64,000 nucleotides of DNA from Fulvivirga ligni (GTDB lineage: Bacteria; Bacteroidota; Bacteroidia; Cytophagales; Cyclobacteriaceae), in assembly GCF_021389935.1 (NCBI RefSeq), contig NZ_CP089979.1, positions 1,655,001 through 1,719,000 of the forward strand, given 5' to 3'. Under the pieces are notes generated by a model. It had not been told where the DNA came from. It did no database searches and worked only from the letters and a program-made list of their open reading frames with translations. Shown here one piece after another: positions 6,627 through 41,910 of this stretch (positions are counted from its first letter, which is position 1; every line of letters begins with the position of its first letter). Both the position numbers and the translations under genes were made by a program.

Positions 6627-6634
6627 AGGGATTT

Positions 6635-7021
6635 TTGGAAGCACAGATTATTCAGTTAAAAACTTCTGTTAGCAAAGGGGGAGAACTTTCGGTGATAGAT
6701 GAAGAACAAATACCTTTTCAGGTGAAAAGATCATATTGGATTTATAACCTGAAGGAAGAAGCGAAAAGGGGCGGCCATGCACATATAAATTCAGATCGTG
6801 TTTTGGTATGCCTACAAGGAGAGGCTGAAATAGTGCTAACTAATAAGGACAATAAAAAGGCTCGTTTTATACTAAATAACCCTGGTGAAGCCCTTTATTT
6901 TCCATGTCAGCACTGGATAGATATGACTTGTAAACAAGGAAGTATTCTTATGGCGCTTACTTCATGCGCTTTTAAAGATGATTTGCTGGAAACTGATCTG
7001 GATAATTTTCTAGCTTCGTGA
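6635..7021 (+). CDS. WxcM/FdtA-like cupin (sugar 3,4-ketoisomerase family)
   Basis: This 128-residue cupin starts with TTG, preceded by AGAGGG at 6625-6630, a fair ribosome-binding site that supports this start. It carries the family motif RGGHAH and the strand CLQGEAEIVL, then NPGEALYFPCQHWIDM, as in the WxcM-like/FdtA/QdtA dTDP-4-keto-6-deoxyhexose 3,4-ketoisomerases. These supply unusual deoxysugars for surface glycans. No rmlAB or aminotransferase genes lie nearby, so the substrate would come from elsewhere, or the protein serves another role. Its stop overlaps the next gene's GTG start as GTGA, indicating translational coupling. Confidence 0.72.
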   Translation: MEAQIIQLKTSVSKGGELSVIDEEQIPFQVKRSYWIYNLKEEAKRGGHAHINSDRVLVCLQGEAEIVLTNKDNKKARFILNNPGEALYFPCQHWIDMTCKQGSILMALTSCAFKDDLLETDLDNFLAS

Positions 7022-27311: not shown

Positions 27312-27344
27312 TAAAAAAGCAGGTCTCTTATGGGAGACCTGCTT
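27312..27344 (-). terminator. Terminator ending the long sensory/exporter gene row
   Basis: The perfect arms AAGCAGGTCTC (27317-27327) and GAGACCTGCTT (27334-27344) have a 6-nt loop. Read on the minus strand they end in a T6 tail. It follows the 143-residue secreted protein gene and is the first terminator after the whole 41.4-27.4 kb minus-strand row. Confidence 0.9.
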
Positions 27345-27365
27345 CATTTTATGTCTATATGAATA

Positions 27366-27797
27366 CTAGCGTTTAAATCCTAAGGCACTTCCACCGCAGA
27401 ATTGTGTGCTATTATCAAATGTATATTGAATGTAATAAATACCTGTAGTATTACATGGATAAGCTATAGCTGAAATATATTGTCCATTCACTTTGCTAGT
27501 TGCTACCTGATTTCTGTTGCTATCATATAGAGATACAACAATACCATCAGTGCTAGATCCAGTTGCGCAAACGTTGATCATATACTGTGTTCCTTTAGTG
27601 AATACGTAAGAGTACTCTACTTTAGTTTTAGCTCCACCCTGACCATCTATTTTATAACTTTTAAGAAAGTTAAAGCCAGAGGCTAATTTAGGTATACAGG
27701 CGTCTGTATATTGCTCAGGATTGCACTGTCCATTGGCGTGGCCAGAGAATAAAAAGAACAACCCCACAACAAATATTGAATAAATAGCCTTTTTCAT
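27366..27797 (-). CDS. Small secreted cysteine-containing protein, unknown
   Basis: This 143-residue protein has a signal peptide (MKKAIYSIFVVGLFFLFSGHANGQ) cleaved before CNPEQY. The mature part (about 119 residues) is strand-rich with five cysteines and motifs KTKVEYSYVFTKGTQYMINVCAT and YPCNTTGIYYIQYTFDNSTQFCGG. This suggests a compact beta-sandwich, possibly a pre-peptidase-C-like or carbohydrate-binding fold (weak guess). It is the last gene before the terminator and 18 bp after a lipoprotein gene. It is not recognised, and could be the substrate or sensor ligand-binding partner of the upstream module. Confidence 0.7.
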   Translation of the reverse strand: MKKAIYSIFVVGLFFLFSGHANGQCNPEQYTDACIPKLASGFNFLKSYKIDGQGGAKTKVEYSYVFTKGTQYMINVCATGSSTDGIVVSLYDSNRNQVATSKVNGQYISAIAYPCNTTGIYYIQYTFDNSTQFCGGSALGFKR

Positions 27798-27815
27798 ATT
27801 ATAAATGTTTTCCTC

Positions 27816-28739
27816 TTAACTAATTATTTTTTTTCTGATTGATGTAATGATGCTTCTAATGTTCTCTACATTTTCATCAGTTATTTTGATTTCGCTAGTG
27901 CTATTATCTTTAATAACCATTACACCATCAACAATTTCGAAGGTAGATTCCTGGTAAGTCTTAATGATCTCTACTGACTCATATTCCTTCTGTAACTTCT
28001 CCATGTCATTCAAAAGTGATGCCATATTTGGATCGCTCTCTTTATAAAAGGATAAAAGTTGCACTACGTTGTCTAAAATGATCTTTTGCTCACCTATGGT
28101 TTCTTTTAAATCCTTGTTAGAAGGATTCTTTTTTGATACTTCGCAAGTAATGTGCATAGCTTCAAGCCATCCTCCTGTAAGCGATAAAACGCTGAGGTTA
28201 GCCCTCTTTTGCTCTTGCAAATACTTGTTTATGTTATTGAAGTTTTGAGTTGTGATTAGTAAAAGTGAATCAAGGTTTTTACTATTAGTAGCCAATCTAC
28301 CAATAGTTTCTATATCAAAAAACTGTCCGATGCTTAGGTTATCCGCAAGTTCTTTGATGGATGACATGTATTCTATACCATCCTGGTTTTGCTCATAAAT
28401 GTTAGTGTATCCTAAGTCAGTACCGTAAATACCTAAATTTAAAGCTTTTCGATAGTTGCTGTTATATTTAGAAATATTATCTGGTGAGTTGAGAAGAGCA
28501 CGATCATATTTGGTTCCAGATTCTTTTAGAAGTACCGAGATCTCTAATGGAGATGGTATCTGCTGGATAATGCTGCTAATAACTTCTTCAGATATGGCAG
28601 GTCCTTCTACCTCCGCAGAGTCAAGGCCTTCTAAAAAAGCGGCTTCATCAGGCTTTTTGCTTGAATTACAAGCAACAATAAAAATCAGAATAAGCCCTAG
28701 TGGTAATATCCTCATAAATAAAAAATTAAGTGATAACAA
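27816..28739 (-). CDS. Helical lipoprotein of the sensory/exporter locus, unknown
   Basis: The frame has 307 residues, but Met9 (at 28715) is the likely start: it gives MRILPLGLILIFIVAC, a lipoprotein signal with lipobox IVAC and lipidated Cys. The mature part is about 280 residues, nearly all helical and rich in S/N/K/E, and ends in a basic segment, IITSIRKKIIS. No family is recognised. It lies between the TerB-ABC exporter gene (51 bp) and the secreted protein gene (18 bp), so a periplasmic adaptor or sensor role with the exporter is possible. Confidence 0.72.
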   Translation of the reverse strand: MLSLNFLFMRILPLGLILIFIVACNSSKKPDEAAFLEGLDSAEVEGPAISEEVISSIIQQIPSPLEISVLLKESGTKYDRALLNSPDNISKYNSNYRKALNLGIYGTDLGYTNIYEQNQDGIEYMSSIKELADNLSIGQFFDIETIGRLATNSKNLDSLLLITTQNFNNINKYLQEQKRANLSVLSLTGGWLEAMHITCEVSKKNPSNKDLKETIGEQKIILDNVVQLLSFYKESDPNMASLLNDMEKLQKEYESVEIIKTYQESTFEIVDGVMVIKDNSTSEIKITDENVENIRSIITSIRKKIIS

Positions 28740-28790
28740 AATTATAAATTCATAGTTCTATTGCAAATAAAAATTCGGTTTAAGCCAACC

Positions 28791-31700
28791 TTAACTTGCC
28801 TTTTTGAATGAAAAATTGATTTTGCCAAACGCACTCAGACCCTTTCTCAAAACTTCAAAATAAAGCGTAATGTAAAGAATCAATGTCATCAACCAAATTA
28901 CTATAGTGTTAAACCAGAAAGTATCTATCTCAACACCAAAGAAATATTTGGTCGGTGCAAAAAAATGTGTTCTATAATCAATAATATTTTCTGGCTGATC
29001 AGGTTCATTATATACTGGGTTTATCCTTTGAAGTAACTCCCCATTATGTTCCATAATCCTTTCTTTCACATTCACGTTCGTCACTAAATCTGCCAGACTT
29101 TCATTAAAGTATTTGTTTTTAAACTCATTAAGGTCATAATCTTCTTGCTGCTGAAGATTAAACATTAACTTCTCTCTCTGAGCTACAATCTTATTATAAA
29201 TGTCTTGATAATGAGCCTTATAATTCGTGAAATAGTTAGTCAGAGTCTGGCTAACCTCTTCAGTATACCCCTCTCGGGTTAACTGTTTGTTTAAATCTAG
29301 CTTTTCGATCCCTTCTCTGTAGGAATCTTTTGCTATCTCATTACGCATAACAACGAAGTCCTTATCTACAATTTGTAAGATGGAATCATTGTCAGACTTA
29401 TATTTGTCATTAATATAGTTCTGATACTCTTTTAACTCCTCTACTAAATAAGCCGCTTTAAAATCTGCTTGTGATTCAAATTTCTCATATTCATAATAAG
29501 GCTCTTCGTATGGGTTACTCTTAAATTGATTAACAGCTAAAGCCTCATATGCCCATCTTGAGGCCATCATATCAGCTACTAAAGGTACTTTGCCTTTAGT
29601 GCTAATTACATTATTCAGTTTATCAAAGCTGAATAATAGCCCGCTTAAAATCATTTGAGGAATGAGTAAAAGCGGAATCATTACATAAACTGTCACAGCC
29701 GAATTGAACGCGCTTGAGATGTTCAATCCGATTACGTTAGCTAAGCATGAGCATGTAAATAGCACAAACCAGAATGAGAAAGTCATTGCTCTGATTTCAA
29801 GAATCAGATCGCCTACTATTACGAAGGTTAAGGTTTGGATAGCTGAAAAAGCAAACAGTATGATAACCTTTGACATTAAATAACTATTCCAGCTAAGATT
29901 AAGGAAGGATTCCCGTTTAAGTATCTTTCTGTCTCTTATTATTTCTTCGGCACTCACGGTTAATCCCATGAAAAGAGCAACAACTATGCTCATGAGCATA
30001 AAGGCTGGGATGTTTTCGTTAAATCTGAAGATATATTCATCACCGTCAGGTGAGCTTTTATAACGTATGATAAAAGCTAATATAATCGCTAGGAGTGGAG
30101 CTTCTAATAAGTTGATTAACAAGTATTGCTTGTTACTTAACTTGCTTAAAAGATCTCTCTTTGTAAAGATAGCAGCCTGTTTAATCTTATTAGGGATGTT
30201 TAGAGAGTGTGGAGGCTCTTCTTTGACATCTTCTACTTTGCTAATAGAGAAGTTTTCCTGATAGCTGTCATTCCATTGCTTAGGATTTACTTTTCTCTTA
30301 TTGGTGAGCTGGCCATATTCATCAACAACTTTGGCCTCTATAATATTGAATATTTGCTCGGGATTTACATTTCCGCAGACCTCACATTGTCCCCTTTGGC
30401 TATCTACCTGATTTGTTGCTTTTTTAAAGTAGCTAACCGCCTCAACCGGATTACCGTAGAAAACAGGGTATCCACCAGTATCCATGATATACATTTTGTC
30501 AAACATCTTGTAGATGTCTGACGATGGCTGGTGAATAACTACGAATATTAACTTTCCTTTTAATGAAAGCTCCTTTAGAAGATCTATTACGTTTTCAGAG
30601 TCTCTGGAACTTAAACCAGAAGTTGGCTCATCTACAAATAAAATGGCTGGTTCTCTGATCAACTCAAGAGCAATGTTGAGTCTCTTTCTCTGTCCTCCAC
30701 TTATGGTCTTATCCAGAACGCTACCTACCTTCAAATCTTTTCTTTGGTCCAGACCAAGGCTTTCAAGCACATCTATAACACGCTTTTTAAGCTCTTCTTC
30801 AGTGTAGTCAGCGAAACATAATTTGGCGTTATAGTACAGGTTTTCATAAACCGTCAATTCCTCAATCAATAGATCATCTTGAGAAACATATCCAATAACA
30901 CCATGGATTTGATCCTTATTCTCAAATATATCATAGCCGTTGATCTCTATGCTACCAACGGTTGGTTTTTCTATACCGGCTAATACGTTGAGAAGTGTAG
31001 TTTTACCCGCACCACTGGCACCCATAATGCCTATGAGTTTTCCAGGTCCTTCCGCTATTTGTACATCTCTTAAACCGAGACCACCATTTGGAAATCTAAA
31101 TTCTTTAATGTGGGCGTTGAATGATAGTTTGGTAGTATTGAATTCTTCATTAAAAAGACCTATTAAATCACTGTAATATAGAGCTGAGCCCTGTGGTGTT
31201 TTAATGGTACTACCATGAGAGTAAAGATAAACCCGGTTCTTTTGCATGATAAATCCATTAAGAACAAGGTCATCTTTACCTATATATTTTGTGAAATACA
31301 TGTCCACACTGTTAACCCTTAGGAAAATCAGATCGCCATGAATTTCTGTTTTAATGTGCTTGTATTCTTTTTCCCCATCAATGTCCTCCTTATTGGCAAT
31401 AAGAACATCACTGTAGTTGATATTCTCGATGTTTTCTTGAAGAACAAATGCTTCTATGAGCTTGTACTCATCTTTAACGATGTTAAATACAGTACTAATT
31501 GTATCAATAATCTCCATTCTCTGAGGAGTGAAATTTTTATCAGCTCCTACGAGTTCTAAGATTTTAATTAGTACAACAACTTTCTGCTTTTGAGTAAGTG
31601 TCTTATTAATTTTTTTACACAAGCCAAGAGTCTTCACTGAGTCACGAACAGAAGTAAGCTTCTTTTTCTTGACTGGCTCTTCTTCACTTTGAGGCTCCTC

Positions 31701-31874
31701 AGAATATCCTGAGAATTTATCATATAGCTCAAGATATTCTTTTACAGAATCCTGATCTAGCTCTTGTTTAAAAAAACTAATAACAAAAAGCCTCTCCTTT
31801 TCCGTAACACCTCCATCTTGCTTGGTTATAATGGCGAATAACTGGGTAAGAGCTTTAAGTATTTCCTCACTCAT
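28791..31874 (-). CDS. TerB-like/ABCG-type ABC transporter fusion, 1027 aa
   Basis: The protein has an N-terminal TerB-like helical region (about 1-150; KQDGGVTEKER and VGADKNFTPQRM repeats), a strand-rich domain (about 165-260), and an ABC ATPase with Walker A GASGAGKT (285-292), signature ISGGQ (391-395) and Walker B ILFVDE (411-416). A linker with CEVCG (about 492-496) leads to an ABCG/ABC-2-type permease with about five helices (580-780), a long coiled-coil-rich soluble loop (about 790-960) and a final helix near 985-1010. Two copies would form a complete exporter. It follows siaC by 56 bp and precedes a lipoprotein gene. The substrate is unknown; the TerB and CxxC parts suggest a regulated or metal-linked role. 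Confidence 0.85.
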   Translation of the reverse strand: MSEEILKALTQLFAIITKQDGGVTEKERLFVISFFKQELDQDSVKEYLELYDKFSGYSEEPQSEEEPVKKKKLTSVRDSVKTLGLCKKINKTLTQKQKVVVLIKILELVGADKNFTPQRMEIIDTISTVFNIVKDEYKLIEAFVLQENIENINYSDVLIANKEDIDGEKEYKHIKTEIHGDLIFLRVNSVDMYFTKYIGKDDLVLNGFIMQKNRVYLYSHGSTIKTPQGSALYYSDLIGLFNEEFNTTKLSFNAHIKEFRFPNGGLGLRDVQIAEGPGKLIGIMGASGAGKTTLLNVLAGIEKPTVGSIEINGYDIFENKDQIHGVIGYVSQDDLLIEELTVYENLYYNAKLCFADYTEEELKKRVIDVLESLGLDQRKDLKVGSVLDKTISGGQRKRLNIALELIREPAILFVDEPTSGLSSRDSENVIDLLKELSLKGKLIFVVIHQPSSDIYKMFDKMYIMDTGGYPVFYGNPVEAVSYFKKATNQVDSQRGQCEVCGNVNPEQIFNIIEAKVVDEYGQLTNKRKVNPKQWNDSYQENFSISKVEDVKEEPPHSLNIPNKIKQAAIFTKRDLLSKLSNKQYLLINLLEAPLLAIILAFIIRYKSSPDGDEYIFRFNENIPAFMLMSIVVALFMGLTVSAEEIIRDRKILKRESFLNLSWNSYLMSKVIILFAFSAIQTLTFVIVGDLILEIRAMTFSFWFVLFTCSCLANVIGLNISSAFNSAVTVYVMIPLLLIPQMILSGLLFSFDKLNNVISTKGKVPLVADMMASRWAYEALAVNQFKSNPYEEPYYEYEKFESQADFKAAYLVEELKEYQNYINDKYKSDNDSILQIVDKDFVVMRNEIAKDSYREGIEKLDLNKQLTREGYTEEVSQTLTNYFTNYKAHYQDIYNKIVAQREKLMFNLQQQEDYDLNEFKNKYFNESLADLVTNVNVKERIMEHNGELLQRINPVYNEPDQPENIIDYRTHFFAPTKYFFGVEIDTFWFNTIVIWLMTLILYITLYFEVLRKGLSAFGKINFSFKKAS

Positions 31875-31930
31875 AAGTACGTCCTCCTACAGGGAGAATT
31901 TAGCAATAGTTTAAAAAATAGAATAAAATA

Positions 31931-32293
31931 TTAGTAAGTTTTGAACTCGAATGGTATCTCTACCAACTCAGAGAACTCCTCACCAGCCTCTTCCATATCT
32001 TCATCATCTTCATGGAAGTACCAAATAATGTTTACGCCATCAATATCTTCCAATGCAGACAATACATCTAATATAAGTTTAGATGAAGCTGTATTGAAGT
32101 ATTCTAGTTTAAACATGAAATCGGTAGAAGGGTTAGGAGCTTTAGAGTACTCTTCTATCCAATCTAAAACAGGTTGATAGAATTCTGCAGAATCTTCAGG
32201 AAGTGATCTTCCAGAGATTTCATAAATACCATTTCCTTTATCTAATATTATTTTTGGGGTATCTTCAGTTCCTTCTAAATTAAGTATATCCAT
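31931..32293 (-). CDS. siaC: SiaC-family regulatory phosphoprotein (DUF1987)
   Basis: This 120-residue protein matches DUF1987: FxLEYFNTASSK at 61-72 and the acidic C-terminal WYFHEDDEDMEEAG. In Pseudomonas, SiaC is phosphorylated by SiaB and dephosphorylated by SiaA, and its unphosphorylated form activates the diguanylate cyclase SiaD; from memory the phosphosite is Thr68. Here the NTAS threonine also falls at residue 68. It is next to a SiaB kinase gene (38 bp), so the switch appears complete, but no SiaD is seen. The effector target must therefore be something else, possibly the adjacent ABC exporter. Confidence 0.85.
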   Translation of the reverse strand: MDILNLEGTEDTPKIILDKGNGIYEISGRSLPEDSAEFYQPVLDWIEEYSKAPNPSTDFMFKLEYFNTASSKLILDVLSALEDIDGVNIIWYFHEDDEDMEEAGEEFSELVEIPFEFKTY

Positions 32294-32331
32294 TGTTTGA
32301 ATGTTTTTAAAAAATAGTTGTTGTCAATTAT

Positions 32332-32862
32332 TTAAGCTCTTGAAATGCATGATTTCAGGCAGAAGAATGAGTTTCCATCTTCCATTTCCAGGAAGTCAAA
32401 CCCTAATTTCTGACCAGATTTACGCGCCATGTCAACAAAGCCTAAACCAGCACCACCTTTATCTGAAATTTCAGTATTTCTGATGATGTCCTTGTATAAT
32501 GCTTTCAAACCATCCTTATCTAAATCATTGATTTCTTTAAGTCTGGATTTAAGGCCTTCTACATTTTCCTTTCTAATAGGGTTTCCAGATATGATGATGT
32601 ACTCATCCTGGTGTTTACCTATCATGAATATTGCAGAATGATTGTTAGTTACCTCATCAGCATGTTTAACAATATTCTGAAGACACTCTACCATCACATT
32701 AAACACTTTCCTTTTAATGCTTGATTCTTCTCCCGATGAATCCATATTACGCTCTGCCATAGCCAGCACGGACTTGGTTATTTCCTGAGTAAATTCACCT
32801 TCATAAACCAAGATAAGATTGTGATCTTGCATGGTTTGGTGTAAGTCGAAAATATACTTCAT
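32332..32862 (-). CDS. siaB: SiaB-family protein kinase
   Basis: This 176-residue protein carries a GHKL-type ATP-binding fold, with the N-box-like VMVECLQNIVKHAD (about 56-69) and the glycine segment DKGGAGLGFVDMARKSG (about 133-149). It fits the SiaB family (DUF6272), related to anti-sigma serine kinases such as SpoIIAB. It would phosphorylate SiaC, encoded 38 bp downstream. It lies 105 bp after the SpoIIE phosphatase gene, a gap containing a small hairpin. Confidence 0.83.
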   Translation of the reverse strand: MKYIFDLHQTMQDHNLILVYEGEFTQEITKSVLAMAERNMDSSGEESSIKRKVFNVMVECLQNIVKHADEVTNNHSAIFMIGKHQDEYIIISGNPIRKENVEGLKSRLKEINDLDKDGLKALYKDIIRNTEISDKGGAGLGFVDMARKSGQKLGFDFLEMEDGNSFFCLKSCISRA

Positions 32863-32921
32863 AAGTTGTTCTATGTTTATTCTTATTGCCGATTTTTTTT
32901 AAAATTCCTTATTTATCAATC

Positions 32922-32941
32922 GGAGGCGCATTAAGACCTCC
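32922..32941 (-). other. Small hairpin between the SpoIIE phosphatase and siaB genes
   Basis: GGAGG (32922-32926) and CCTCC (32937-32941) flank a 10-nt loop. No T-run follows on the minus strand, so this is not a convincing terminator. It may only shape read-through into siaB or RNA stability. Confidence 0.3.
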
Positions 32942-32967
32942 AAAATACTACATTTAATCAATAATCT

Positions 32968-35900
32968 CTAAAATTTTATTCCTATTAATAAAACGTCATC
33001 TGTTTGCTTCTCATCACCTCTCCATTCTTCCCACTCTTTATCGATGATTTTGTAAGCGTCTTTCATCGATTTTTCATGGATTTCTGTAATAATGGTTCTG
33101 GTTCGTTTAGGGCCATATTTTCTATTGTCCGGTCCTCCGAATTGATCAGGGAATCCATCAGAACAGAAGTAGAAGGAATCTCCCTCATTTAATGCAATCT
33201 TATGACTGGTGAAATTGGTTTGGTTCTTATAGATACCTCCACCTATAGCGAACTTATTACCTTTGATTTCAATCATTTCACCATTTTGCATTACATATAA
33301 TGGTCTGTGAGCTCCTGCGTATTCAACGGTACGCTTTTCAACGTTGATCTTACAAAGAGCTATATCCATACCATCTTTAGTCTTCGAATCATCTTGATCT
33401 TGTCTTAAAGTGGTAGTAACACCTTCATCCAGCTGATCTAAGATTATACCAGGATCAGATATTTTTCTACTTCTTACAATATCATTTAGTAGGAAGTATC
33501 CTATTAAAGATAATAACGCTCCTGGTACACCATGTCCTGTACAATCTACAGCAGCCATATAAATGTCATTTCCTACCTGCACATACCAAGGGAAGTCACC
33601 ACTAACTACATCCTTCGGTTTATACAAAATGAAAGAGTCAGGTAATATCTTGTTAATGACAGAGTTATTAGGAAGAATAGCATTTTGGATACGCTTGGCG
33701 TAGTTAATACTATCCGCAATCTTTTTATTCTTATTCTGAATTTCTAACTCAATGATTTTACGCTCAGTAATATCGTGAGATACTACTAGAACTGATTCAA
33801 TATGCTGTGATTCATCATATTCCGGGATAGCATTCACCTGCATTACACGGTCTCCCATTTCAGAAGGGAAGTCCATTTCAGTAGCTACCTTGTCATTAGA
33901 TGAATTTACCTCTTCTACTATTCTTAACCATTGTTCTAAAACTTTTCCGTTAAGGTCCGTTTCGCTCACATTATGATTAATGTATTCGTTAGGTTTGTTT
34001 CCAGTATATTCTTCAATGATTGGGTTGATATAAGAGATAGTATCAGATTCTAATCTGGCAATTAAGTCAGGTGAATTTTCTGATAAGGCCTGCATCTTAC
34101 TTCTCATTCTTTGCTCCTGCTCAGCCCTTCTTCTTTCAGTAATATCCGTAGAGTTAACTATTAAGCCGTGGATGGCTGGATTCGACATGAAGTTAGTACC
34201 TGTAGATTCTAACCAGATGTAATTACCTTCTTTAGTTTTGTACTCATACTGAATGGTTACTTGCTCTTCTGGGTTTGCCTTCAGCTGGGTAAACATATTC
34301 TTAAATGCTTCCACTGCTTCAGGATGTACCTTGTCAACATCAGTTACACCCATCATTTCCTTCTGAGAGTATCCTAAAATAGGCTCTACAGATGGACTGA
34401 TATATCTGATGGTCTCATCTTCTTCATAGATAGTGATTACCTCAGAAGCGTTTTCAAGAAGAAGCTGCATTCTCTTCTGCGTTCTGTTCACCTCTTCAAT
34501 TTGCTCTTCTAGTTTGTTGTTAGAGTTTTGAAGCTCTTCCTGAGTGGCCTGCATTTCTTCAGCATTCTGTCTTAAGATCTCCTGCTTTTCTTGAAGTTCA
34601 GCACTCATGGTTTGAGATTCCTGTAATAGCTTACGTGTTCTCTCGTTAACTTTAATGTTGAATACTGTTCTTGCCAGAATTAAACTCAGCTCCTCTACGA
34701 ACTTTACTTTGCCCTGATCAAACTTCCCAAATCCTGCAAATTCTAGTACACCATACACCTTTTCGTCAGTTATCAATGGCACTATTAATAAGCAAGTAGG
34801 CCTTTGATCTCCTAAAATTCCGGATGTGATTGTTACATAATCTACTGGAATTTCGGTTCTTAATATAGTGTCTTTTTCAGCTGCAGCCTGACCGATTAAT
34901 CCTTCTGCAAATTTAAACTTGGACTGTAAGTGTTTTTTTCTGTTATAAGCAAAGCTTGACTTCATTTCAAGAGCAGGTGCACCTTCATCATCATTGATTA
35001 CATAGAAGGCTCCTTGAACAGCTCCGATTTTATTGATGATATATTTAATAGTTTCATCACCCAGAGTCTCAAGATTATCATGAGCTCTTAAGATCTCGCC
35101 AATTTCTGCTACCCCTGTTACAATCCAGTTGCGTTGCTTATCTCTCTTTTCAGCTTCAATTAGGTTATCCCTCATGTTTACAAGAGATATACCCAAATCA
35201 TCGTCATCACTGATAGGCTTAAAGTTAGCATCGAAGTTTCCTTCACCAATTTGCTGAGCAAAACGCGCAGTGCCTTTAAGCGTCTTAACCAAATAATTAA
35301 GGCTAACTGCCATTGTACCTAGCTCGTCATTTGATTGTTTTTCTACTTGTTCTGGTAAAATACCATTTCCTACAAGTTCCAATGTTTTCTTAAGCGAGTT
35401 TAATGGCTTAGTTAAGTATTTTGAGAATATTAATGAGATTAATGTTGCCAGAATAGCTACTATTAACCCTGAAGCTAAAAGTTTGTATAAAAGACTATCA
35501 ATCTCATCAAAGATTTCATTGCTGTCGATTTTAGCAACCAGACCCCATTTTACATTTGGGATAGCTCTCCAAGCCGCTACAGTTTCCACACCTCTGTAGT
35601 CATCTGTGTAGCCGGCTCCATCCATTCCTCTTACAGATTGCTGCACAGCCACGGAAAATTCAGCTTCTTTTCTACTAACAAATGAACTGTCAGAGCTATT
35701 TCTAGGATGATTTAAGAAGTTTATATTTTTAGTGGTAGTATCAATTCTTGCAAGGATGATTTCACCAGTTTTACCTAAACCTGTAGTGTCATTTATAGAC
35801 TTATAGATAGGATCCATTCTTATTTTTATGAAAAGAAGAGACTTCTTTTCTGATGGATGTGTTATTGGTGCTCCTGCATAAATAAAATCAGACTCACCGT

Positions 35901-36567
35901 CGTTATCTATATTACTAAAGTAGATATCATTAACTGCGTTATCTAGTATACTAGTAGATGAGAAGTTATTTGAGGCATCTACACTGGCATCTGTGGAGAA
36001 TAAAATCTTTCCGGTAGTTCGTGTAATGTAAATGTCAGCGTAGTTGTTAATCTTTTTAAGATTTTGTAGCCATTCACTTACCTCTTCATTGGATATAGTT
36101 GAGGCTGGAGCGCTCATTTCTTCCATTCCACCGAAGCCCATGTCAGCCATTGATTCATCAGGTGCAGAACTCATCATATCCATCCCGGAATCCATCATGT
36201 CCATTCCAGAATCCATCATATCCATACCGCCTTCCTCGGAGGTAGTTTCTTCAGTGGCATCACCCATGTCTGGTAAAACCATCATATCCATGCCCATGCC
36301 GCCGGCTGGTGCATCATCTATGTTAACCCCTTCTTTTAGGATTTTAGAGTTTTGTAGCAGCTTTAGATTAGCAATTACATGGTCAAAGTTAGATTCTAAT
36401 TTTTCCGCCTTACTGTCAGCGATTACACTAAGGTTTTCAATATAATTATCGCGAATAGTGTCTTTGGTAAGCTTATAGGACAGAAAGCTGATGGCAAGTA
36501 CAGTGAGTATTACTACTGCAATTACCAGAGCTGTGATTTTTTTACTTATAGTCAGTTTATTAAACAT
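32968..36567 (-). CDS. SiaA-like sensor phosphatase: dCache-HAMP-GAF-PAS-PAS-SpoIIE, with Met-rich insert
   Basis: The 1199-residue membrane protein has TM1 at 10-32, a periplasmic Cache-like domain (about 35-360) and TM2 at 362-383. HAMP-like segments follow (about 384-475), then GAF (about 480-640), a coiled coil (645-700), PAS (about 705-815), PAS (about 825-940) and a PPM/SpoIIE phosphatase (about 955-1199) with G990-D991, D1008 in DCTGHG, SDG at 1136-1138 and D1190-D1191. All metal-binding acids are present. Residues 91-151 form an unusual insert with 18 methionines (MDMMDSG repeats). By analogy with SiaA it should dephosphorylate SiaC in response to a periplasmic signal. It overlaps no gene; the GAF gene ends 11 bp upstream. 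Confidence 0.87.
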   Translation of the reverse strand: MFNKLTISKKITALVIAVVILTVLAISFLSYKLTKDTIRDNYIENLSVIADSKAEKLESNFDHVIANLKLLQNSKILKEGVNIDDAPAGGMGMDMMVLPDMGDATEETTSEEGGMDMMDSGMDMMDSGMDMMSSAPDESMADMGFGGMEEMSAPASTISNEEVSEWLQNLKKINNYADIYITRTTGKILFSTDASVDASNNFSSTSILDNAVNDIYFSNIDNDGESDFIYAGAPITHPSEKKSLLFIKIRMDPIYKSINDTTGLGKTGEIILARIDTTTKNINFLNHPRNSSDSSFVSRKEAEFSVAVQQSVRGMDGAGYTDDYRGVETVAAWRAIPNVKWGLVAKIDSNEIFDEIDSLLYKLLASGLIVAILATLISLIFSKYLTKPLNSLKKTLELVGNGILPEQVEKQSNDELGTMAVSLNYLVKTLKGTARFAQQIGEGNFDANFKPISDDDDLGISLVNMRDNLIEAEKRDKQRNWIVTGVAEIGEILRAHDNLETLGDETIKYIINKIGAVQGAFYVINDDEGAPALEMKSSFAYNRKKHLQSKFKFAEGLIGQAAAEKDTILRTEIPVDYVTITSGILGDQRPTCLLIVPLITDEKVYGVLEFAGFGKFDQGKVKFVEELSLILARTVFNIKVNERTRKLLQESQTMSAELQEKQEILRQNAEEMQATQEELQNSNNKLEEQIEEVNRTQKRMQLLLENASEVITIYEEDETIRYISPSVEPILGYSQKEMMGVTDVDKVHPEAVEAFKNMFTQLKANPEEQVTIQYEYKTKEGNYIWLESTGTNFMSNPAIHGLIVNSTDITERRRAEQEQRMRSKMQALSENSPDLIARLESDTISYINPIIEEYTGNKPNEYINHNVSETDLNGKVLEQWLRIVEEVNSSNDKVATEMDFPSEMGDRVMQVNAIPEYDESQHIESVLVVSHDITERKIIELEIQNKNKKIADSINYAKRIQNAILPNNSVINKILPDSFILYKPKDVVSGDFPWYVQVGNDIYMAAVDCTGHGVPGALLSLIGYFLLNDIVRSRKISDPGIILDQLDEGVTTTLRQDQDDSKTKDGMDIALCKINVEKRTVEYAGAHRPLYVMQNGEMIEIKGNKFAIGGGIYKNQTNFTSHKIALNEGDSFYFCSDGFPDQFGGPDNRKYGPKRTRTIITEIHEKSMKDAYKIIDKEWEEWRGDEKQTDDVLLIGIKF
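36172..36231 (-). repeat. 21-bp tandem repeat encoding MDMMDSG units
   Basis: Nearly identical 21-nt units start at 36172, 36193 and 36114+99 (about 36214), for example CATCATATCCATCCCGGAATC followed by CATCATGTCCATTCCAGAATC. They are in frame and code for the MDMMDSG repeats of the sensor phosphatase. Slippage here would change repeat number by seven residues without breaking the frame. Confidence 0.8.
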
Positions 36568-36578
36568 AAATATATTTT

Positions 36579-37439
36579 TTATGCCTCGTTATTTCCTTTT
36601 GATTTATCTGATGCTGGCTTTTTAAGCTGGTAGGTCATTTTGGATTCTTTCTCCAATACTTCCAGTGCCTGCGTAAATTGTCTGAATGCGTCGTTAACCA
36701 TTCTTTCTTCAGTTTTGCCTAGTGAGGTAAATGAAGCTATCTCCACTACGCTATGAAGCTCATCTTTGTAAATGATTGGAACAATTAATAAATGAGTAGG
36801 AGTAGAGGCACCTAACCCAGACACAATTTTTATATAACCATCAGGAATATCGTCTATTAAAATCGTTTTCTTTTCAAGAGCAGTTTGACCAACCAAACCT
36901 TCGCCAAATTCAAATTGAAGGGTTTGAGATTCTGCGAGTGCTAAAGCGTAAGAAGCTTTTAGAGAGAGTATCCTTTTGTCTTCTCTTTCTTCGGCCTTAT
37001 AAAATGCTCCTAGCCCAGCTTCCATTTGCTTACAAACTTCATGTAGAAGATTTTTAGCTAGTTTACTTTCTTCAGTTTCCTTGGCAAGTAAGGTTTTTAT
37101 AGCATTTAAGTCTAATGAGTGCTCATCATCACCATTTTCATCAGTGCTGGCACCATTGGCAGATTGCGAATTCTTCTTTTTTTCTACATAGATCACCTCT
37201 TGTGTAGAATTTGATAAAGCAATAACTAAACTCCCAAGGCCAAGCAATAAGGTGATGCCTGCCACTATGTATAATTTAAAAAATACGGGTTGTGCAGCTG
37301 GTAGTTGAGATATATTGATTACCCCACTTTGATAGATGAGGTCATCTTGTAATTGAAAAAGAACATAAGCCGTAAAAAGCATGCCGGCTACATAAAGGCT
37401 AATCAGAGCAATGTTCAATTTTCTGAATTTTAACTCCAT
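36579..37439 (-). CDS. Membrane-anchored GAF-domain protein
   Basis: This 286-residue protein has two helices (about 10-30 and 54-76) joined by a short periplasmic loop, an acidic linker (88-110) and one GAF domain (about 120-265) with FGEGLVGQTALEKKTIL and SGLGASTPTHLLIVPI. The GAF is clearly paralogous to those in the 804- and 1199-residue neighbours. No output domain follows, so it may act as a receptor subunit or adaptor. Its start overlaps the cheB stop as TAATG, indicating translational coupling, and it lies 11 bp before the sensor phosphatase gene. Confidence 0.8.
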   Translation of the reverse strand: MELKFRKLNIALISLYVAGMLFTAYVLFQLQDDLIYQSGVINISQLPAAQPVFFKLYIVAGITLLLGLGSLVIALSNSTQEVIYVEKKKNSQSANGASTDENGDDEHSLDLNAIKTLLAKETEESKLAKNLLHEVCKQMEAGLGAFYKAEEREDKRILSLKASYALALAESQTLQFEFGEGLVGQTALEKKTILIDDIPDGYIKIVSGLGASTPTHLLIVPIIYKDELHSVVEIASFTSLGKTEERMVNDAFRQFTQALEVLEKESKMTYQLKKPASDKSKGNNEA

Positions 37440-38032
37440 TATTTATAATGTTTATTTAACTCTGAAAAAAAATTAACGATATCGTCTGTTTTAAGTACAT
37501 GATCTATTGTTGTTACATTCATAGCGGCAGTAGGCATAGTATCTATCATACATTCTGATGGCTCCTGCACTATGGTGAGACCGCCTTTTTCTTTGATATA
37601 TTTCATGCCCAGAGCACCATCTTTATTAGCCCCTGAAAGGAGAATGCCGATGAGTTTGTTTCTATATACATATGCCGCTGTGCCGAGTGTTATATCTATG
37701 GCTGGTCTCGAATTATTTATCATCTCTTCAGTAGATAGGCTAAAGTAATTACCTAACTCTATGGATAGATGGTAGTTAGCTGGTGCAAGGTAAACCTTTC
37801 CACGCTTTATATTTTCCTTATCAAAGGGTTCTGTTACCTCCATGATGCTCTTGATAGAAAGTGCTTCCACAAATCCATTCCTAACATGCTTGAGCCTATG
37901 TAAGCACATGATTATTGGTAGAGGAAAATCTGCCGGGAGCTGTGATAAAATCTTCACAATACCCTGAAAGCTTCCTGCAGAACCACCTATCACTACGGCC
38001 TTATACCTATTATTTAAATCAAAGCGACTCAT
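37439..38032 (-). CDS. CheB-type methylesterase without receiver domain
   Basis: This 197-residue protein is only the CheB catalytic domain: nucleophile S18 in VIGGSAGS, H45 in CLHRLKHV and D138 in LLSGANKDGALGM complete the triad. The N-terminal response-regulator domain of classical CheB is missing, so it would not be controlled by CheA phosphorylation. It would remove methyl groups (or deamidate) from Glu/Gln residues of a receptor. It is 16 bp downstream of cheR and coupled by TAATG to the GAF gene. No MCP gene is in the window, so the substrate is not a standard one. Confidence 0.88.
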   Translation of the reverse strand: MSRFDLNNRYKAVVIGGSAGSFQGIVKILSQLPADFPLPIIMCLHRLKHVRNGFVEALSIKSIMEVTEPFDKENIKRGKVYLAPANYHLSIELGNYFSLSTEEMINNSRPAIDITLGTAAYVYRNKLIGILLSGANKDGALGMKYIKEKGGLTIVQEPSECMIDTMPTAAMNVTTIDHVLKTDDIVNFFSELNKHYK

Positions 38033-38048
38033 CCCCAGTATACCCTGC

Positions 38049-38867
38049 TTAATCTTTAATTTTCTTATATACCTTCTCTTCGTTGTTTACCACTATGAAT
38101 TTATTAGCTATATCACACCAGATCAATGATTCTTTGGAACCAATAGCCAAATAACCGTATTTAAATAAGCTTTCGTGGAATTTGCGAAGAACATCATTCT
38201 GCAATGTCTGATTAAAATAGATCATCACATTTCTGCAGAGTATAAGGTCAAACTTGTTGAAAACATCTCCATTTACAAGGTCATGCTTTCTAAAAGATAC
38301 ATTTTCTACCAGGCTTTGGTCCATCACTGCCCTGCCTCCTACTTCCTTAAAGTAATCTTTAAGCGTGCTGTTACCTTGATATCTAATGTAGTTTTTTTCG
38401 TTTAACTCCATGTTCTTGATATTGTACTCTCCGGCTTTCGCTCTTTCCAATATCGTGGTGTCCAAATCGGTGGCTATGATAGATACCTGATCATGGATGC
38501 CCATTTCTTTAAGCAATATGGCCATAGAAAACACCTCTTCGCCAGAGGAGCATCCCGCATGCCATATTCTGATTTTCTGATGGTTTAAGAGAATAGCAGG
38601 TATAATATCATCTCTAAGGACTCTCCAGAAAGGAGGATCTCTGAACATCTCGGTAACATTTACCGTGATTTCATTAAGAAAATCATCTAAGAATTGTGGC
38701 TCATTCAGCTTTTTTATCAGTATGTCTACTGTGATATTTTGAAGCTCCAGTATTCTAAGTATTCTCCTCTTGAATGAAGACATAGCATAGTTAGTGAAGT
38801 CATAGTTGTATCTGGTTTTCACTAACTCTGTGATCTTCTTTAAATCTGCAATATCAATTTCCTTCAT
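38049..38867 (-). CDS. CheR-type protein-glutamate O-methyltransferase
   Basis: This 272-residue protein has the CheR layout: an N-terminal helical domain (RRILRILELQNI), TVNVTEMFRD (68-77), SAM motif IWHAGCSSGEE (101-111) and CRNVMIYF (211-218). It uses SAM to methylate glutamate side chains on receptors. No TPR extension is present. Paired with a CheB catalytic domain and flanked by HAMP-GAF-PAS proteins instead of an MCP, it likely methylates one of those neighbours. Confidence 0.9.
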   Translation of the reverse strand: MKEIDIADLKKITELVKTRYNYDFTNYAMSSFKRRILRILELQNITVDILIKKLNEPQFLDDFLNEITVNVTEMFRDPPFWRVLRDDIIPAILLNHQKIRIWHAGCSSGEEVFSMAILLKEMGIHDQVSIIATDLDTTILERAKAGEYNIKNMELNEKNYIRYQGNSTLKDYFKEVGGRAVMDQSLVENVSFRKHDLVNGDVFNKFDLILCRNVMIYFNQTLQNDVLRKFHESLFKYGYLAIGSKESLIWCDIANKFIVVNNEEKVYKKIKD

Positions 38868-38947
38868 TATCTATTGTGCCAACTGTTCTTATAAATTAAA
38901 GAACTTATTAAAAAATCTTGTACAAGTACTTTAGTTGTCTTTAGTAC

Positions 38948-41362
38948 TTAAAACCAAATAATGTGAATATGATGATTGCTTTGATCAGCGTAGATATTCA
39001 CTTGTTTAGTTGCATGGTTAGTCTTAAAGCTCACTTCTTTTGTCACGAATGTATTCCATTCAGTTTGGGTTAATACGGTTTTGTCTATTAAGGTATCTGT
39101 CTCTTTATGAATTAATTCACTTTTTTCTACTTCTAAAAAATTAAGGGCATTTGCGTTAATGTACGATATTTTTTCTTCGTTATCTATAATAATAATATTA
39201 GCTATTTCTTCAAAGGCTTTTAGTGAGGTTTCTGCAGTTTGTAATTTCTTATCGAGCTGCTCCTGAGTAATTTGTAACTCTTCAAGGTGCTGTCTAAGCA
39301 TTGCTTCTACTTCATCTATGTTGCCTTCTCCTTCGCCAACAAGATCATTTTTAACATCTGTAATATCTTTAGAAGTACCGAACGTACCCATACAGTTACC
39401 TGCTTTGTCAAAGAAAGGAAGTTTTGTGGTGAGAACCCACTGGTCAGTGCCGTTGGCCACTAACTCATGAACAAGGTTATTTACAAAACCTTGACCACTT
39501 TTAATGATTTCTTGTTCTTCGTTGAAAAACTTACTTGCCGCTTCATGCGCATGGAAGTCAAAATCTGACTTGCCAATCATTTCATCTACGCTGAAAGGGA
39601 AGAGCTTTTCCATGGATTTACTTATTCTAATAAACTTGCTTTCCAGGTCTTTAAAGTAGATATAGTCAGGAAGACTATTCATTAATGCGTCCAAGAGTGC
39701 TTTCTCCTTAATGAGATCTTCCTGCATCTTGTTGTTATCATTCATCTGCCTCTGTAGCTGCTCTTGAGTGGCTTGCAGCTCTTCCATATTTTGTCTCATC
39801 TCCTCTTCCTGGCCTTGCATTTGCTCGGCTAGCTCTTGAGATTCTTCTAAGAGGTGTTTGGTACGTTGGTTGTTTTTAACGCCGGCTATGGTGCTGGCTA
39901 TACTCTCTCCCAGCTTTTCTACAAACTCTATTTCATATTGCTTGTACTCGGTGAAGGAGGCCAATTCAATGACTCCATAGATCTCATTATTGATTTTCAA
40001 TGGTACCAATAATAGCGACTTTGGATTGGCGTTGCCTAGGCCGGAAGTTATGCTAACATATTCATCTGGCACTTCCAGTAAATAAATGGTTTCTTTTTCC
40101 TGGTAAGTTTGACCAACCAATCCTTCACCTATTCTGTAGGACTTGGTGTCATATTTTTTGCTGTCAAAAGCAAAAAGCGAAACAAGCTCTAACTTTATAT
40201 TCTGAGAGTCTTCTTCATCTATAATGTAGATGCCACCTTGGTTAGAGTGAGTGTATTTTACGAGGTTAGATATAATTATATCACCAAGTTTGGAAACACT
40301 GTCATCAGTAGATCTTAAGATGTCTACGAATTTGGCAAGCCCTTCTGTAGTCCATTTTCTTTCCTGATCAGCTATTTCAACCTTTTTCATTTGCTCTCTC
40401 ATCAGTAAAAGAGCTTTTTCAAGGCTTTCGTCTCCTACGTTTTCTTCACTGATGCTTTCTAGCTGAGCGTTTAACTGACCCTCTTCTATGCTTTTAACAA
40501 AGCTTGTTGCACTTTTTAGGTTCGTTACAATCTTATTAACGGCATTAGTTATTTTAATTATCTCCAGAGGAGCCTGGTCAATAGACGTGATATCAAGTTT
40601 GCCGTTACTTACATCTTCTGTAGACTTACTGAGTTTATCTAAAGGTTCTACTACCTGTTTTTTAATGAAAGTGTAAACGAAAATAATTGCTGCCGTAAAT
40701 AGCAGTAGGAACACAAATAAGATGAAAGTGAGATAAGAATGATCTTCTTTTTTAGCCTCTATCTGTTTGGTGCTTAAAGCATGACTGAGCTTGTTTATTT
40801 TTAAAATATCTTCCTGAATGTGGTTGTTTGCTCTTATTACTTTGGCATTATTCAAAACTAAAACCTTTTGTGAGGTTTCTGTGGTGTATGTGTTGAGCGA
40901 ATCATTTAAAGGAACCTGACGAGTTTCTTCTACTAGTGAATCGATTTTTAAAGGCTCATAAAGCAGGTCCTCTATGTGAAGTGATGTGCTTTGCCATAAC
41001 GCATAAATTTCACTTTCAAGCTCCTCGCTGCTAAATTCACTGAGGTTAGTGCTGTCAGTAACAATGGAAATCTCAGAATCAGGATTGTTTCCTATTTTAT
41101 TAACAATGCCATTGATCTCCGATCTGGTTGATTCTAATCTAAGTTTAGCAGCTTCACCATTTATATAAGCACTGCTTTCTCTTTGAAATTCCTCTGTGAG
41201 AGTTTGCAGTTTTCTAAGCGCATTAATCCTCTCCGTATCTTCTAATAGATTCTTTTGGTAGTGATCTATTAAAAAAAAGTTAGTGAGTGCCAATAGAAAA
41301 AAAGCAAAGCATAGAAAAAGTATTTGCTTGCCTATTGATAAATTTTTCAGATCAAGGTTCAT
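38948..41362 (-). CDS. HAMP-GAF-PAS-PAS membrane sensor lacking an output domain
   Basis: The 804-residue protein has TM1 (about 13-33), a helical periplasmic domain (34-208), TM2 (about 210-232), HAMP (about 233-285), a HAMP-like segment leading to GAF (about 345-495), a coiled coil (500-550), PAS (about 553-670, YIYFKDLESKFIRISKSM), a second coiled coil (682-715) and a final PAS (about 712-800). No histidine kinase, MCP, GGDEF or phosphatase domain follows. Its GAF and coiled coils are close paralogues of those in the 1199-residue sensor phosphatase. As first gene of the row with cheR 80 bp downstream, it is a candidate CheB/CheR substrate and receptor, which is inference. Confidence 0.85.
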   Translation of the reverse strand: MNLDLKNLSIGKQILFLCFAFFLLALTNFFLIDHYQKNLLEDTERINALRKLQTLTEEFQRESSAYINGEAAKLRLESTRSEINGIVNKIGNNPDSEISIVTDSTNLSEFSSEELESEIYALWQSTSLHIEDLLYEPLKIDSLVEETRQVPLNDSLNTYTTETSQKVLVLNNAKVIRANNHIQEDILKINKLSHALSTKQIEAKKEDHSYLTFILFVFLLLFTAAIIFVYTFIKKQVVEPLDKLSKSTEDVSNGKLDITSIDQAPLEIIKITNAVNKIVTNLKSATSFVKSIEEGQLNAQLESISEENVGDESLEKALLLMREQMKKVEIADQERKWTTEGLAKFVDILRSTDDSVSKLGDIIISNLVKYTHSNQGGIYIIDEEDSQNIKLELVSLFAFDSKKYDTKSYRIGEGLVGQTYQEKETIYLLEVPDEYVSITSGLGNANPKSLLLVPLKINNEIYGVIELASFTEYKQYEIEFVEKLGESIASTIAGVKNNQRTKHLLEESQELAEQMQGQEEEMRQNMEELQATQEQLQRQMNDNNKMQEDLIKEKALLDALMNSLPDYIYFKDLESKFIRISKSMEKLFPFSVDEMIGKSDFDFHAHEAASKFFNEEQEIIKSGQGFVNNLVHELVANGTDQWVLTTKLPFFDKAGNCMGTFGTSKDITDVKNDLVGEGEGNIDEVEAMLRQHLEELQITQEQLDKKLQTAETSLKAFEEIANIIIIDNEEKISYINANALNFLEVEKSELIHKETDTLIDKTVLTQTEWNTFVTKEVSFKTNHATKQVNIYADQSNHHIHIIWF

Positions 41363-41427: not shown

Positions 41428-41910
41428 TTACAATGAATGTTTGTTAAAGCAAAAAGGTAATAGGACTTTGGTTGATTTTGTGATAACCCACTGATTATAA
41501 CTACTTTGTATTATTACATTTATATTAGATTCTTGCCTTGTTTCAGTCTCTAATAATACCTGTCTGCAGCCCCCACAGGGTGTTACAGGTACAAACTCTG
41601 ATTCACCTTTTCTTTTAGCGGTAACAGCCACTTTTTTTATTTTCTTACCAGCATAATTTGCACCTATAAAAAATAGAGCCACACGTTCAGCACATAAGCC
41701 CGCTGGGAAAGATGAGTTTTCCTGATTAGACCCGGTGACTACTTCACCATTTTCCAATAATACTGCAGCTCCCACCTGAAAATTTGAATACGGTGAATAT
41801 GACGTATCACAGGCCTGCTCTGCTTTCTTTATAAGATCCTTAACTTCCTCTTCAAGTTCGGAAAAAGAATATGTTGAATATTCTGTGTTTCCAATTAATT
41901 CTTCTGCCAT
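41428..41910 (-). CDS. cdd: Cytidine deaminase
   Basis: This 160-residue protein has the zinc/proton-shuttle motif CAERVALF (Cys-Ala-Glu) and PCGGCRQVL, the homotetrameric cytidine deaminase signature. It deaminates cytidine and deoxycytidine in pyrimidine salvage in the cytoplasm. The N-terminal 25 residues before IKKAEQACDTSYSPYSNFQVGAA are longer than in minimal enzymes. It lies 65 bp upstream of the sensory row on the same strand; co-transcription is possible but functionally unrelated. Confidence 0.92.
   Translation of the reverse strand: MAEELIGNTEYSTYSFSELEEEVKDLIKKAEQACDTSYSPYSNFQVGAAVLLENGEVVTGSNQENSSFPAGLCAERVALFFIGANYAGKKIKKVAVTAKRKGESEFVPVTPCGGCRQVLLETETRQESNINVIIQSSYNQWVITKSTKVLLPFCFNKHSL

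What the first reader, a model, noticed from the sequence alone, without database searches (positions are those of the whole stretch)
27366..41362. A ten-gene row joining a SiaABC partner-switch to orphan CheB/CheR, multiple GAF/PAS sensors and a TerB-ABCG exporter
Seen in the sequence: ten minus-strand genes in a row with gaps of 105 bp or less, in the order HAMP-GAF-PAS-PAS, CheR, CheB without receiver, membrane GAF, Cache-HAMP-GAF-PAS-PAS-SpoIIE, SiaB, SiaC, TerB-ABCG, lipoprotein, secreted protein, with the first clear terminator after the last. Known: SiaA/SiaB set the phosphorylation of SiaC, which in Pseudomonas controls the cyclase SiaD; CheB/CheR tune receptor methylation. Inferred: a receptor whose gain is set by methylation feeds a phosphatase/kinase switch, and unphosphorylated (or phosphorylated) SiaC controls the ABC exporter or its periplasmic partners. 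I know of no description of this combination.
Basis: partly seen in the sequence, partly recalled or inferred. Interest (0 to 1): 0.9.

Follow-up and report, generated by a model that had tools for sequence, protein, structure and literature searches.

The report
Receptor-CheBR-SiaABC switch with ABC exporter
A nine-gene row, kept together across many Bacteroidota families, appears to join a family of sensor proteins that have no output domain, and the enzymes that fine-tune chemotaxis receptors, to a protein-phosphorylation switch and a membrane exporter, a signalling layout that I have not found described.

Summary
In detail: ten tight minus-strand genes end at a terminator; cytidine deaminase lies 65 bp upstream. 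CheR-CheB-GAF-SpoIIE-SiaB-SiaC-TerB/ABCG-lipoprotein-secreted protein is a real conserved unit: all nine lie around the exporter gene in 53 of 85 usable loci (11 of 14 families), and the order recurs in Bacteroidales. The tenth gene belongs to a dispersed family: membrane sensor-GAF-conserved coil, no output domain. Strong members occur in 67 of 67 genomes whose locus has CheR, CheB, SpoIIE, SiaC and exporter; 32 of these show no MCP. The coil has three E/Q pairs seven residues apart, the register of Tsr's methylation helix. It is complete in 35 of 42 receptors with CheB (CheR/CheB) and in 1 of 9 without (few independent events, other polar positions erode too). SiaC's phosphosite T68 is kept in 105 of 106; the exception, G243, has no detectable SiaB, SpoIIE, CheB or receptors yet keeps SiaC-exporter-lipoprotein-secreted protein. 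Best reading: methyl-tunable receptors steer the SpoIIE phosphatase, and SiaC gates the exporter. Methylation, SiaC-exporter contact and cargo are inferred, not shown.

The parts
38948..41362 (-). HGP: output-less receptor, membrane sensor-GAF-coil-PAS-coil-PAS-like, 804 aa
   Evidence: hit by the receptor profile A1 at 5e-88
39755..39811 (-). first coil of HGP, QEEEMRQNMEELQATQEQL: three E/Q pairs 7 apart, candidate methylation helix
   Evidence: (sequence), coordinates worked out by hand; register compared with Tsr
38049..38867 (-). CheR methyltransferase
   Evidence: 8.6e-46; residues 103-111 invariant in 44 of 44
37439..38032 (-). CheB methylesterase without receiver domain
   Evidence: 4e-48; S18, H45, D138 (catalytic triad by recalled CheB motifs) invariant in 43 of 43
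36579..37439 (-). membrane-anchored GAF protein, without the coil; poorly conserved outside the GAF domain
32968..36567 (-). SiaA-type SpoIIE/PP2C phosphatase: periplasmic sensor-HAMP-GAF-coil-PAS-PAS-SpoIIE
   Evidence: PP2C part matches SiaA structure 6k4e at 5e-38; Asp/Gly motif residues 91 to 93 of 93
34531..34587 (-). coil of the SpoIIE protein, KQEILRQNAEEMQATQEEL
   Evidence: coordinates worked out by hand
32332..32862 (-). SiaB-family protein kinase (DUF6272)
   Evidence: 6kko_A, 3.6e-17
31931..32293 (-). SiaC phosphoprotein, phosphosite T68 in YFNTASSK
28791..31874 (-). TerB-like domain + ABCG-type half exporter
27816..28739 (-). LIPO: helical lipoprotein (Cys24 invariant in 42), no known fold matched
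27366..27797 (-). SEC: secreted jelly-roll protein resembling PPC/collagen-binding domains
   Evidence: best 2.7e-5, TM 0.44 of query
27316..27345 (-). intrinsic terminator at the end of the row
41428..41910 (-). cytidine deaminase, same strand 65 bp upstream; seen next to the row only in loci of the window's family

Best explanation
The row encodes one signalling-to-export system. Shown by comparison: nine genes are inherited as a unit, and a dispersed family of output-less GAF-coil receptors occurs almost only where the exporter and the unit's coil-bearing SpoIIE protein occur. Inferred: the receptors (HGP is one) and the SpoIIE phosphatase associate through their shared GAF-coil module, as chemoreceptors associate with their kinase. 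CheR and the receiver-less CheB add and remove methyl groups on the coil's E/Q pairs and so set receptor sensitivity. Receptor state sets SpoIIE phosphatase activity against the SiaB kinase and thereby the phosphorylation of SiaC at T68. SiaC, probably unphosphorylated, then binds and gates the TerB-ABCG exporter, which works with the periplasmic lipoprotein and the secreted jelly-roll protein on an unknown cargo.
For: Unit: all nine genes in 53 of 85 usable loci, 11 of 14 families, with flanks that mostly differ outside the window's family; Bacteroidales-type loci keep the order, several with a receptor gene beside CheR. SiaC and ABC co-occur: 119 of 241 genomes both, 115 neither, 7 only one. 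Receptors: strong profile hits in 67 of 67 genomes whose locus has CheR, CheB, SpoIIE, SiaC and ABC (67 of the 100 loci fetched), in 104 of 121 ABC+ and 1 of 120 ABC- genomes. Of 17 exporter-positive genomes picked because they lack strong receptors, 16 also lack a SpoIIE protein matching from GAF-coil to end (exception G140); of five others, G030, G148 and G168 (strong receptors) have it and G019 and G047 (no strong receptors) do not. No MCP in 32 of the 67, and exactly one CheB in 22 of those. Coil: E/Q pairs 7 apart as at Tsr 296/297, 303/304, 310/311; pairs complete in 35 of 42 receptors with CheB (CheR/CheB), 1 of 9 without. Phosphosite: T68 in 105 of 106 SiaC; G243 (T68I) has no match for SiaB, SpoIIE, CheB or receptors, yet keeps SiaC-ABC-LIPO-SEC. 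In G168 the operon is split and both parts carry SiaB-SiaC. Active-site motifs are intact.
Against: No experiment. The coil of the SpoIIE protein is eroded in part of families f15 and f22 and missing in L257 although CheR/CheB are present there, so SpoIIE itself is not always a plausible substrate. In the receptors lacking CheR/CheB other polar coil positions erode even more than the pairs (0.92 to 0.33 against 0.94 to 0.57), so the erosion is not specific to the pairs. The minus group is five Bacteroidales-type loci plus four receptors of one genome, perhaps two independent events; genome-wide absence of CheR/CheB was not tested for the five. G140 keeps GAF-SpoIIE-SiaB-SiaC without strong receptors; G030 has receptors without CheB or ABC. 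The coil also occurs in real MCPs (4 of 7 by regex, a fifth by the pattern). L201 and L211 keep the threonine although no SiaB lies in the locus. Two ABC paralogues of the own genome lie away from SiaC. 32 of 85 usable loci lack at least one of the nine genes.
Confidence: 0.55

Rival explanations
1. The coil is an ordinary signalling helix of Cytophagales sensors, not a methylation site. The receptors feed SpoIIE through it, and CheR/CheB act on MCPs or have another substrate.
For: The coil is also found in real MCPs of the same genomes and between tandem repeats; all polar coil positions erode together; the SpoIIE coil is eroded in families with CheR/CheB; the Tsr small-residue pattern is only partly matched.
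Against: 32 of 67 genomes with the CheR/CheB-containing locus show no MCP, 22 of these with a single CheB; coil erosion goes with absence of CheR/CheB.
Confidence: 0.3
2. Two neighbouring systems: a CheR-CheB-GAF-SpoIIE-SiaB-SiaC switch acting on an effector elsewhere (for example a diguanylate cyclase, as in Pseudomonas), and an independent exporter operon ABC-LIPO-SEC.
For: SiaC-ABC gap is longer than the others in relatives (median 157 bp, 41 of 85 at 150 bp or less); ABC-LIPO pairs without SiaC exist (L089; L254, L262, L265).
Against: SiaC stays beside ABC where CheR, CheB and SpoIIE (and in some also SiaB) are not in the locus (G243, G016, L201, L211); the split operon in G168 keeps SiaB-SiaC on the ABC part; SiaC and ABC co-occur in 119 genomes with 7 discordant.
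Confidence: 0.2
3. Co-inheritance without joint function: gene order kept by chance or by slow genome rearrangement.
For: Flanking genes (cytidine deaminase, esterase, SDR, a dehydrogenase) are also conserved within the window's genus and much of its family.
Against: Outside the family the flanks mostly differ while the nine stay; the same order in Bacteroidales; SiaC and exporter both absent from 17 genomes of the window's own family.
Confidence: 0.03

Closest known systems
SiaABCD of Pseudomonas aeruginosa (PMC7647112, passages read; PMC8457831, search listing only)
   Same: SpoIIE/PP2C phosphatase, SiaB kinase, SiaC with T68; homologous by sequence
   Different: No diguanylate cyclase SiaD in the row; adds CheR, CheB, a GAF-coil receptor and an ABC exporter with two envelope proteins
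MCP-CheA chemosensory pathways, including those with alternative cellular functions and Myxococcus Frz (recalled; PMC2535941 and PMC3447774 seen in a search listing only)
   Same: CheR, CheB, membrane receptors, some with HAMP or a 4HB_MCP_1 sensor, E/Q-pair coil
   Different: No MCP signalling domain in the receptors scanned; no CheA, CheW or CheY found in the row; output through SpoIIE and SiaC (inferred)
Partner-switching modules of the RsbU/RsbW/RsbV kind (recalled)
   Same: PP2C phosphatase, HATPase-like kinase, STAS-like phosphoprotein logic
   Different: SiaB/SiaC families, no sigma factor in the row, receptor side with CheR/CheB
ABCG/White-type half transporters (TIGR00955)
   Same: ATPase then ABC2 membrane domain order, conserved ABC motifs
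   Different: N-terminal TerB-like domain, conserved lipoprotein and secreted partners, SiaC beside it; 273.8 bits against a cut-off of 736

Membership tests
SiaABC partner switch | SiaA-type PP2C phosphatase with its conserved metal-site residues | tested here: met
   6k4e_A 5e-38; Asp/Gly motif residues 91 to 93 of 93
SiaABC partner switch | SiaB-family kinase | tested here: met
   NF038262 184.7 bits, cut-off 85
SiaABC partner switch | SiaC with phosphorylatable T68 | tested here: met
   T68 aligned to Pseudomonas SiaC; T in 105 of 106
SiaABC partner switch | SiaB phosphorylates and SpoIIE dephosphorylates SiaC | not testable with these tools
   needs purified proteins
SiaABCD of Pseudomonas (equivalog) | SiaA, SiaB, SiaC equivalog scores over the NCBIfam cut-offs | tested here: not met
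   214.9 of 700, 85.9 of 225, 83.3 of 150
SiaABCD of Pseudomonas (equivalog) | SiaD diguanylate cyclase in the operon | tested here: not met
   none among the ten proteins scanned; the rest of the genome was not searched for one
MCP-CheA chemosensory system | receptor with MCP signalling domain | tested here: not met
   no PF00015 in HGP or in 10 + 10 receptor proteins scanned; separate MCPs exist in the own genome (5 matches)
MCP-CheA chemosensory system | CheA/CheW in the cluster | tested here: not met
   none among the ten proteins scanned; not searched genome-wide
MCP-CheA chemosensory system | receptor methylation by CheR/CheB | not testable with these tools
   active-site motifs intact, E/Q pairs in register with Tsr; chemistry needs an experiment
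ABCG exporter | Walker A/B, signature, ABC2 membrane domain | tested here: met
   (motif names recalled)

The most novel reading that the evidence does not exclude
Bacteroidota have a second class of methyl-accepting receptors that do not use CheA at all. Output-less membrane receptors carry a GAF domain and a conserved coil that orphan CheR and receiver-less CheB methylate; through this coil they assemble with a coil-bearing PP2C phosphatase, turning a serine/threonine partner switch into a chemosensory-like output that gates a TerB-ABCG exporter.
Probability: 0.4. Interest if true: 0.93.

Novelty: new variant of a known kind. Interest (0 to 1): 0.82.

Why it matters
It would give a function to CheR/CheB pairs in genomes without detectable MCPs, to a large family of receptors without output domains, and to SiaC in bacteria of another phylum than Pseudomonas. 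It would show that adaptation by methylation can be attached to a phosphatase/kinase partner switch instead of a histidine kinase. It also makes testable predictions: which residues are methylated, that G243-like genomes are locked, and that SiaC binds the exporter.

Tried and rejected
Rejected: chance gene order (flanks turn over, nine genes stay). Rejected: 'the tenth gene is part of a fixed ten-gene unit' (HGP lies next to CheR in the genus, L214 included, and in L032; a receptor gene lies at or near that place in several Bacteroidales-type loci; most other loci of the order lack it). Rejected as stated: 'system confined to the order' (my first reading; one search shows it in Bacteroidales, a Flavobacteriia-labelled MAG and Chlorobiota-labelled MAGs). 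Led nowhere: PDB fold search of LIPO (no match at E 0.001 or less); sequence search of SEC in the PDB (best 0.12); paper searches for the combination or the coil string (open-access PMC library only). Considered but not run: gliding-motility markers, a genome-wide diguanylate cyclase search, a genome-wide CheA search.

Rows dropped and limits: four receptors were set aside because CheB status is uncertain (G125 x1, G148 x3), and only the first coil of each protein was used (second copies of L185, L233, L248, L272 dropped). For the 29 order receptors of the plus group only CheB in the genome was known, not CheR. In one search, 15 of 100 loci were set aside because a contig edge cut them; the 85 come from 84 genomes (G016 twice), the script printed 15 families because that duplicate carried no family label, and 14 is right; some of the 100 are exporter paralogue loci, because the best exporter hit was fetched. 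My hand transcription of the CheB list has 168 genomes where the tool counted 167; I could not find the extra one. The 1e-70 receptor threshold was chosen after seeing the bimodal list. The 22 genomes were picked, 17 of them for lacking strong receptors. The 22 motif-selected receptors of A1 were not used for the pair count because selection by the motif would be circular. The 106 SiaC sequences include the window's and some paralogues outside the row. P values ignore shared ancestry.
Full report
Observation. A 12-pair terminator follows the last gene; the other minus-strand terminator-like sites inside the row lie within genes. A cytidine deaminase gene on the same strand lies 65 bp upstream, so the transcript may be longer than described. 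The window lies in a 6.52 Mb single-contig genome. Locus L195, named Fulvivirga lutimaris, has the same length and exporter start as L077 from a genome of the window's genus, so the genus is most likely Fulvivirga (inference).

Conservation. Of the 13 loci of congeners fetched for the window-type SiaC (L071-L083), the ten not cut by contig ends keep the whole row, flanks included (in L082 the exporter is split into two frames). This alone proves little. I therefore fetched the best exporter hit of further genomes of the family and order: 100 loci. With profiles of each gene, 85 loci from 84 genomes were usable and 53 of 85 carry all nine genes CheR-CheB-GAF-SpoIIE-SiaB-SiaC-ABC-LIPO-SEC on one strand, in 11 of 14 families. 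The other 32 lack at least one, in part because the fetched exporter is a paralogue. Outside the window's family the flanking genes mostly differ. Median gaps are 14 to 107 bp except SiaC-ABC (157 bp; 41 of 85 at 150 bp or less), so a second promoter there is possible. Earlier samples had suggested restriction to the order: full-length exporter hits in only 2 of the sampled non-order genomes (395 genomes) and the coil pattern in 0 of 113 (118 genomes of which 5 are in the order). One search corrects that.

Presence and absence. Over 241 genomes of the order, SiaC is found in 124 and the exporter in 121; 119 have both, 115 neither, 7 only one. Seventeen genomes of the window's own family lack both. 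These counts are not independent, because genomes share ancestry.

The receptor family. The coil string shared by HGP and SpoIIE led to a DNA pattern found in 80 of 241 genomes, all exporter-positive; the reversed pattern gave none in the genomes listed. The proteins outside the row are membrane sensors, some with HAMP, CHASE3 or (L243, L272) 4HB_MCP_1, followed by GAF, the coil QEEEMRQNMEELQATQEEM and zero to several PAS domains. No output domain was found in the 20 receptor proteins scanned or in HGP. Some end shortly after the coil; one has five strict copies of it in tandem. A profile of GAF plus coil (A1, 22 sequences) gives a bimodal result over 241 genomes: 105 genomes with a best hit of 1.1e-78 or better, 33 with weak hits (3.6e-53 at best), the rest none at 1e-30. 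Strong hits occur in 104 of 121 exporter-positive and 1 of 120 exporter-negative genomes (G030), and in 67 of 67 genomes whose locus has CheR, CheB, SpoIIE, SiaC and exporter. I then searched 22 picked genomes for the SpoIIE protein. Of 17 exporter-positive genomes picked because they lack strong receptors, 16 have no SpoIIE protein matching from the GAF-coil to the end; G140 has one. Of five others, G030, G148 and G168 (strong receptors) have one, G019 and G047 (no strong receptors) do not. So the receptors track the coil-bearing SpoIIE protein closely, with G140 as exception.

CheR and CheB. 32 of the 67 genomes show no MCP at E 0.001, and 22 of these have exactly one CheB domain, so an MCP is not a likely substrate there. 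Active-site motifs are intact. The coil carries E/Q pairs at positions 3/4, 10/11 and 17/18 of a 19-residue stretch, the spacing of Tsr 296/297, 303/304 and 310/311; Q297 was placed in the K-12 tsr gene, and which Tsr residues are methylated is recalled. Small residues A-T fall where Tsr has A-S, but the other small positions of Tsr are not small here, so this is a resemblance and not a full match. Among 51 receptors counted, all six pair positions are E or Q in 35 of 42 with CheB (13 with CheR and CheB in the locus, 29 with CheB somewhere in the genome) and in 1 of 9 without (Fisher p 8e-5, ignoring ancestry). The nine are five Bacteroidales-type loci (L243, L248, L249, L252, L272; the last has a lone divergent CheR) and four receptors of G030; genome-wide absence is known only for CheB in G030. 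Against a specific methylation reading: other polar positions erode more than the pairs, the SpoIIE coil is eroded in part of f15 and f22 despite CheR/CheB and is missing in L257, and the coil also occurs 444 to 576 residues before the hairpin tip in 4 of 7 real MCPs looked at, one of them in the window's own genome (a fifth, L297, carries the pattern in frame by my reckoning).

SiaC and the exporter. Window SiaC aligns to Pseudomonas SiaC with T68 conserved (T68 as phosphosite from PMC7647112, passages). In 106 SiaC sequences from the fetched loci (window and some paralogues included) T68 is kept in 105. The exception is G243, T68I. That genome (100% complete as listed) has no match for SiaB (the tool warns that its control genomes also rang nowhere, but the same model matches the window SiaB), for SpoIIE at 1e-20, for CheB or for receptors at 1e-30, yet keeps SiaC-ABC-LIPO-SEC. 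L203 has P at the site but its contig ends just before SiaC, so nothing can be said of SiaB there; L201 and L211 keep T without SiaB in the locus. In G168 one place has CheB-GAF-SpoIIE-SiaB-SiaC and another CheR-SiaB-SiaC-ABC-LIPO-SEC, so each part kept its own SiaB-SiaC; the ABC parts of G117, G156 and G206 look the same. These patterns favour SiaC acting on the exporter and G243 being a locked form. They do not show binding.

Envelope partners. LIPO is predicted with confidence (pLDDT 86) as a helical lipoprotein with a small sheet; no PDB match at 0.001. SEC (pLDDT 91) resembles PPC/collagen-binding jelly rolls (best 2.7e-5, TM 0.44 of the query), which suggests binding outside the cell. 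The cargo is unknown.

Literature. Searches for SiaC, SiaB, SiaA with partner switch, for Cytophaga with SpoIIE, CheB, CheR, SiaC with Bacteroidetes, orphan CheB/CheR, the coil string (none), SpoIIE with CheR/CheB/SiaC/DUF names and gliding with CheR listed no paper that from its title, abstract start or term counts describes this combination; some searches showed only the first 20 of 60, 70 and 79. The library holds open-access PMC papers only, and I read passages of two (PMC7647112, PMC9239204).

Verdict. The tenth gene is reinterpreted as one of a large receptor family. Methylation of the coil and SiaC control of the exporter are the best-supported mechanism, unproven. Components are known; the wiring is not, hence 'new variant of a known kind', with a categorically new receptor class as the bold reading.

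Noticed in passing
window 32968-36567 (aa about 92-150): Met-rich low-complexity insert (GGMDMMDSGMDMM...) in the periplasmic sensor part of the SpoIIE protein, not conserved in relatives; spacer or possible metal-binding stretch.
   Followed up: no
L089 and L090 (own genome): Two more TerB-ABCG paralogues (49% and 45% identity); L089 has a LIPO-like gene directly upstream, neither has SiaC nearby.
   Followed up: partly
L159 (G016): Three SiaB genes in a row before SiaC-ABC with two LIPO genes and SEC, no CheR/CheB/SpoIIE; genome with 14 SiaC matches, 31 matches to the SpoIIE protein and no receptor hit at 1e-30.
   Followed up: partly
L106, L299, L300: Receptors with five or more coils: 70-residue spacing in L106 (932 aa), 152-168 in L299 (2160 aa, eight by regex) and 170 in L300 (five by regex).
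   Followed up: partly
L301 (own genome C1:3604500-3613500): An MCP of the window's genome carries the same coil far upstream of its signalling hairpin, with a longer CheB gene (343 aa) downstream.
   Followed up: partly
L088 (own genome C1:1389671-1409171): A second, solitary SiaC (42% identity) without SiaB or SpoIIE found beside it.
   Followed up: no
L082 (G007), 5026-8107: The exporter gene is split into two overlapping frames in this congener; sequencing error or recent break.
   Followed up: no
G030 (L173, L275, L276, L187, L188): Genome with the GAF-SpoIIE pair and receptors but no detectable CheB or exporter; three of its four receptor coils looked at are eroded.
   Followed up: partly
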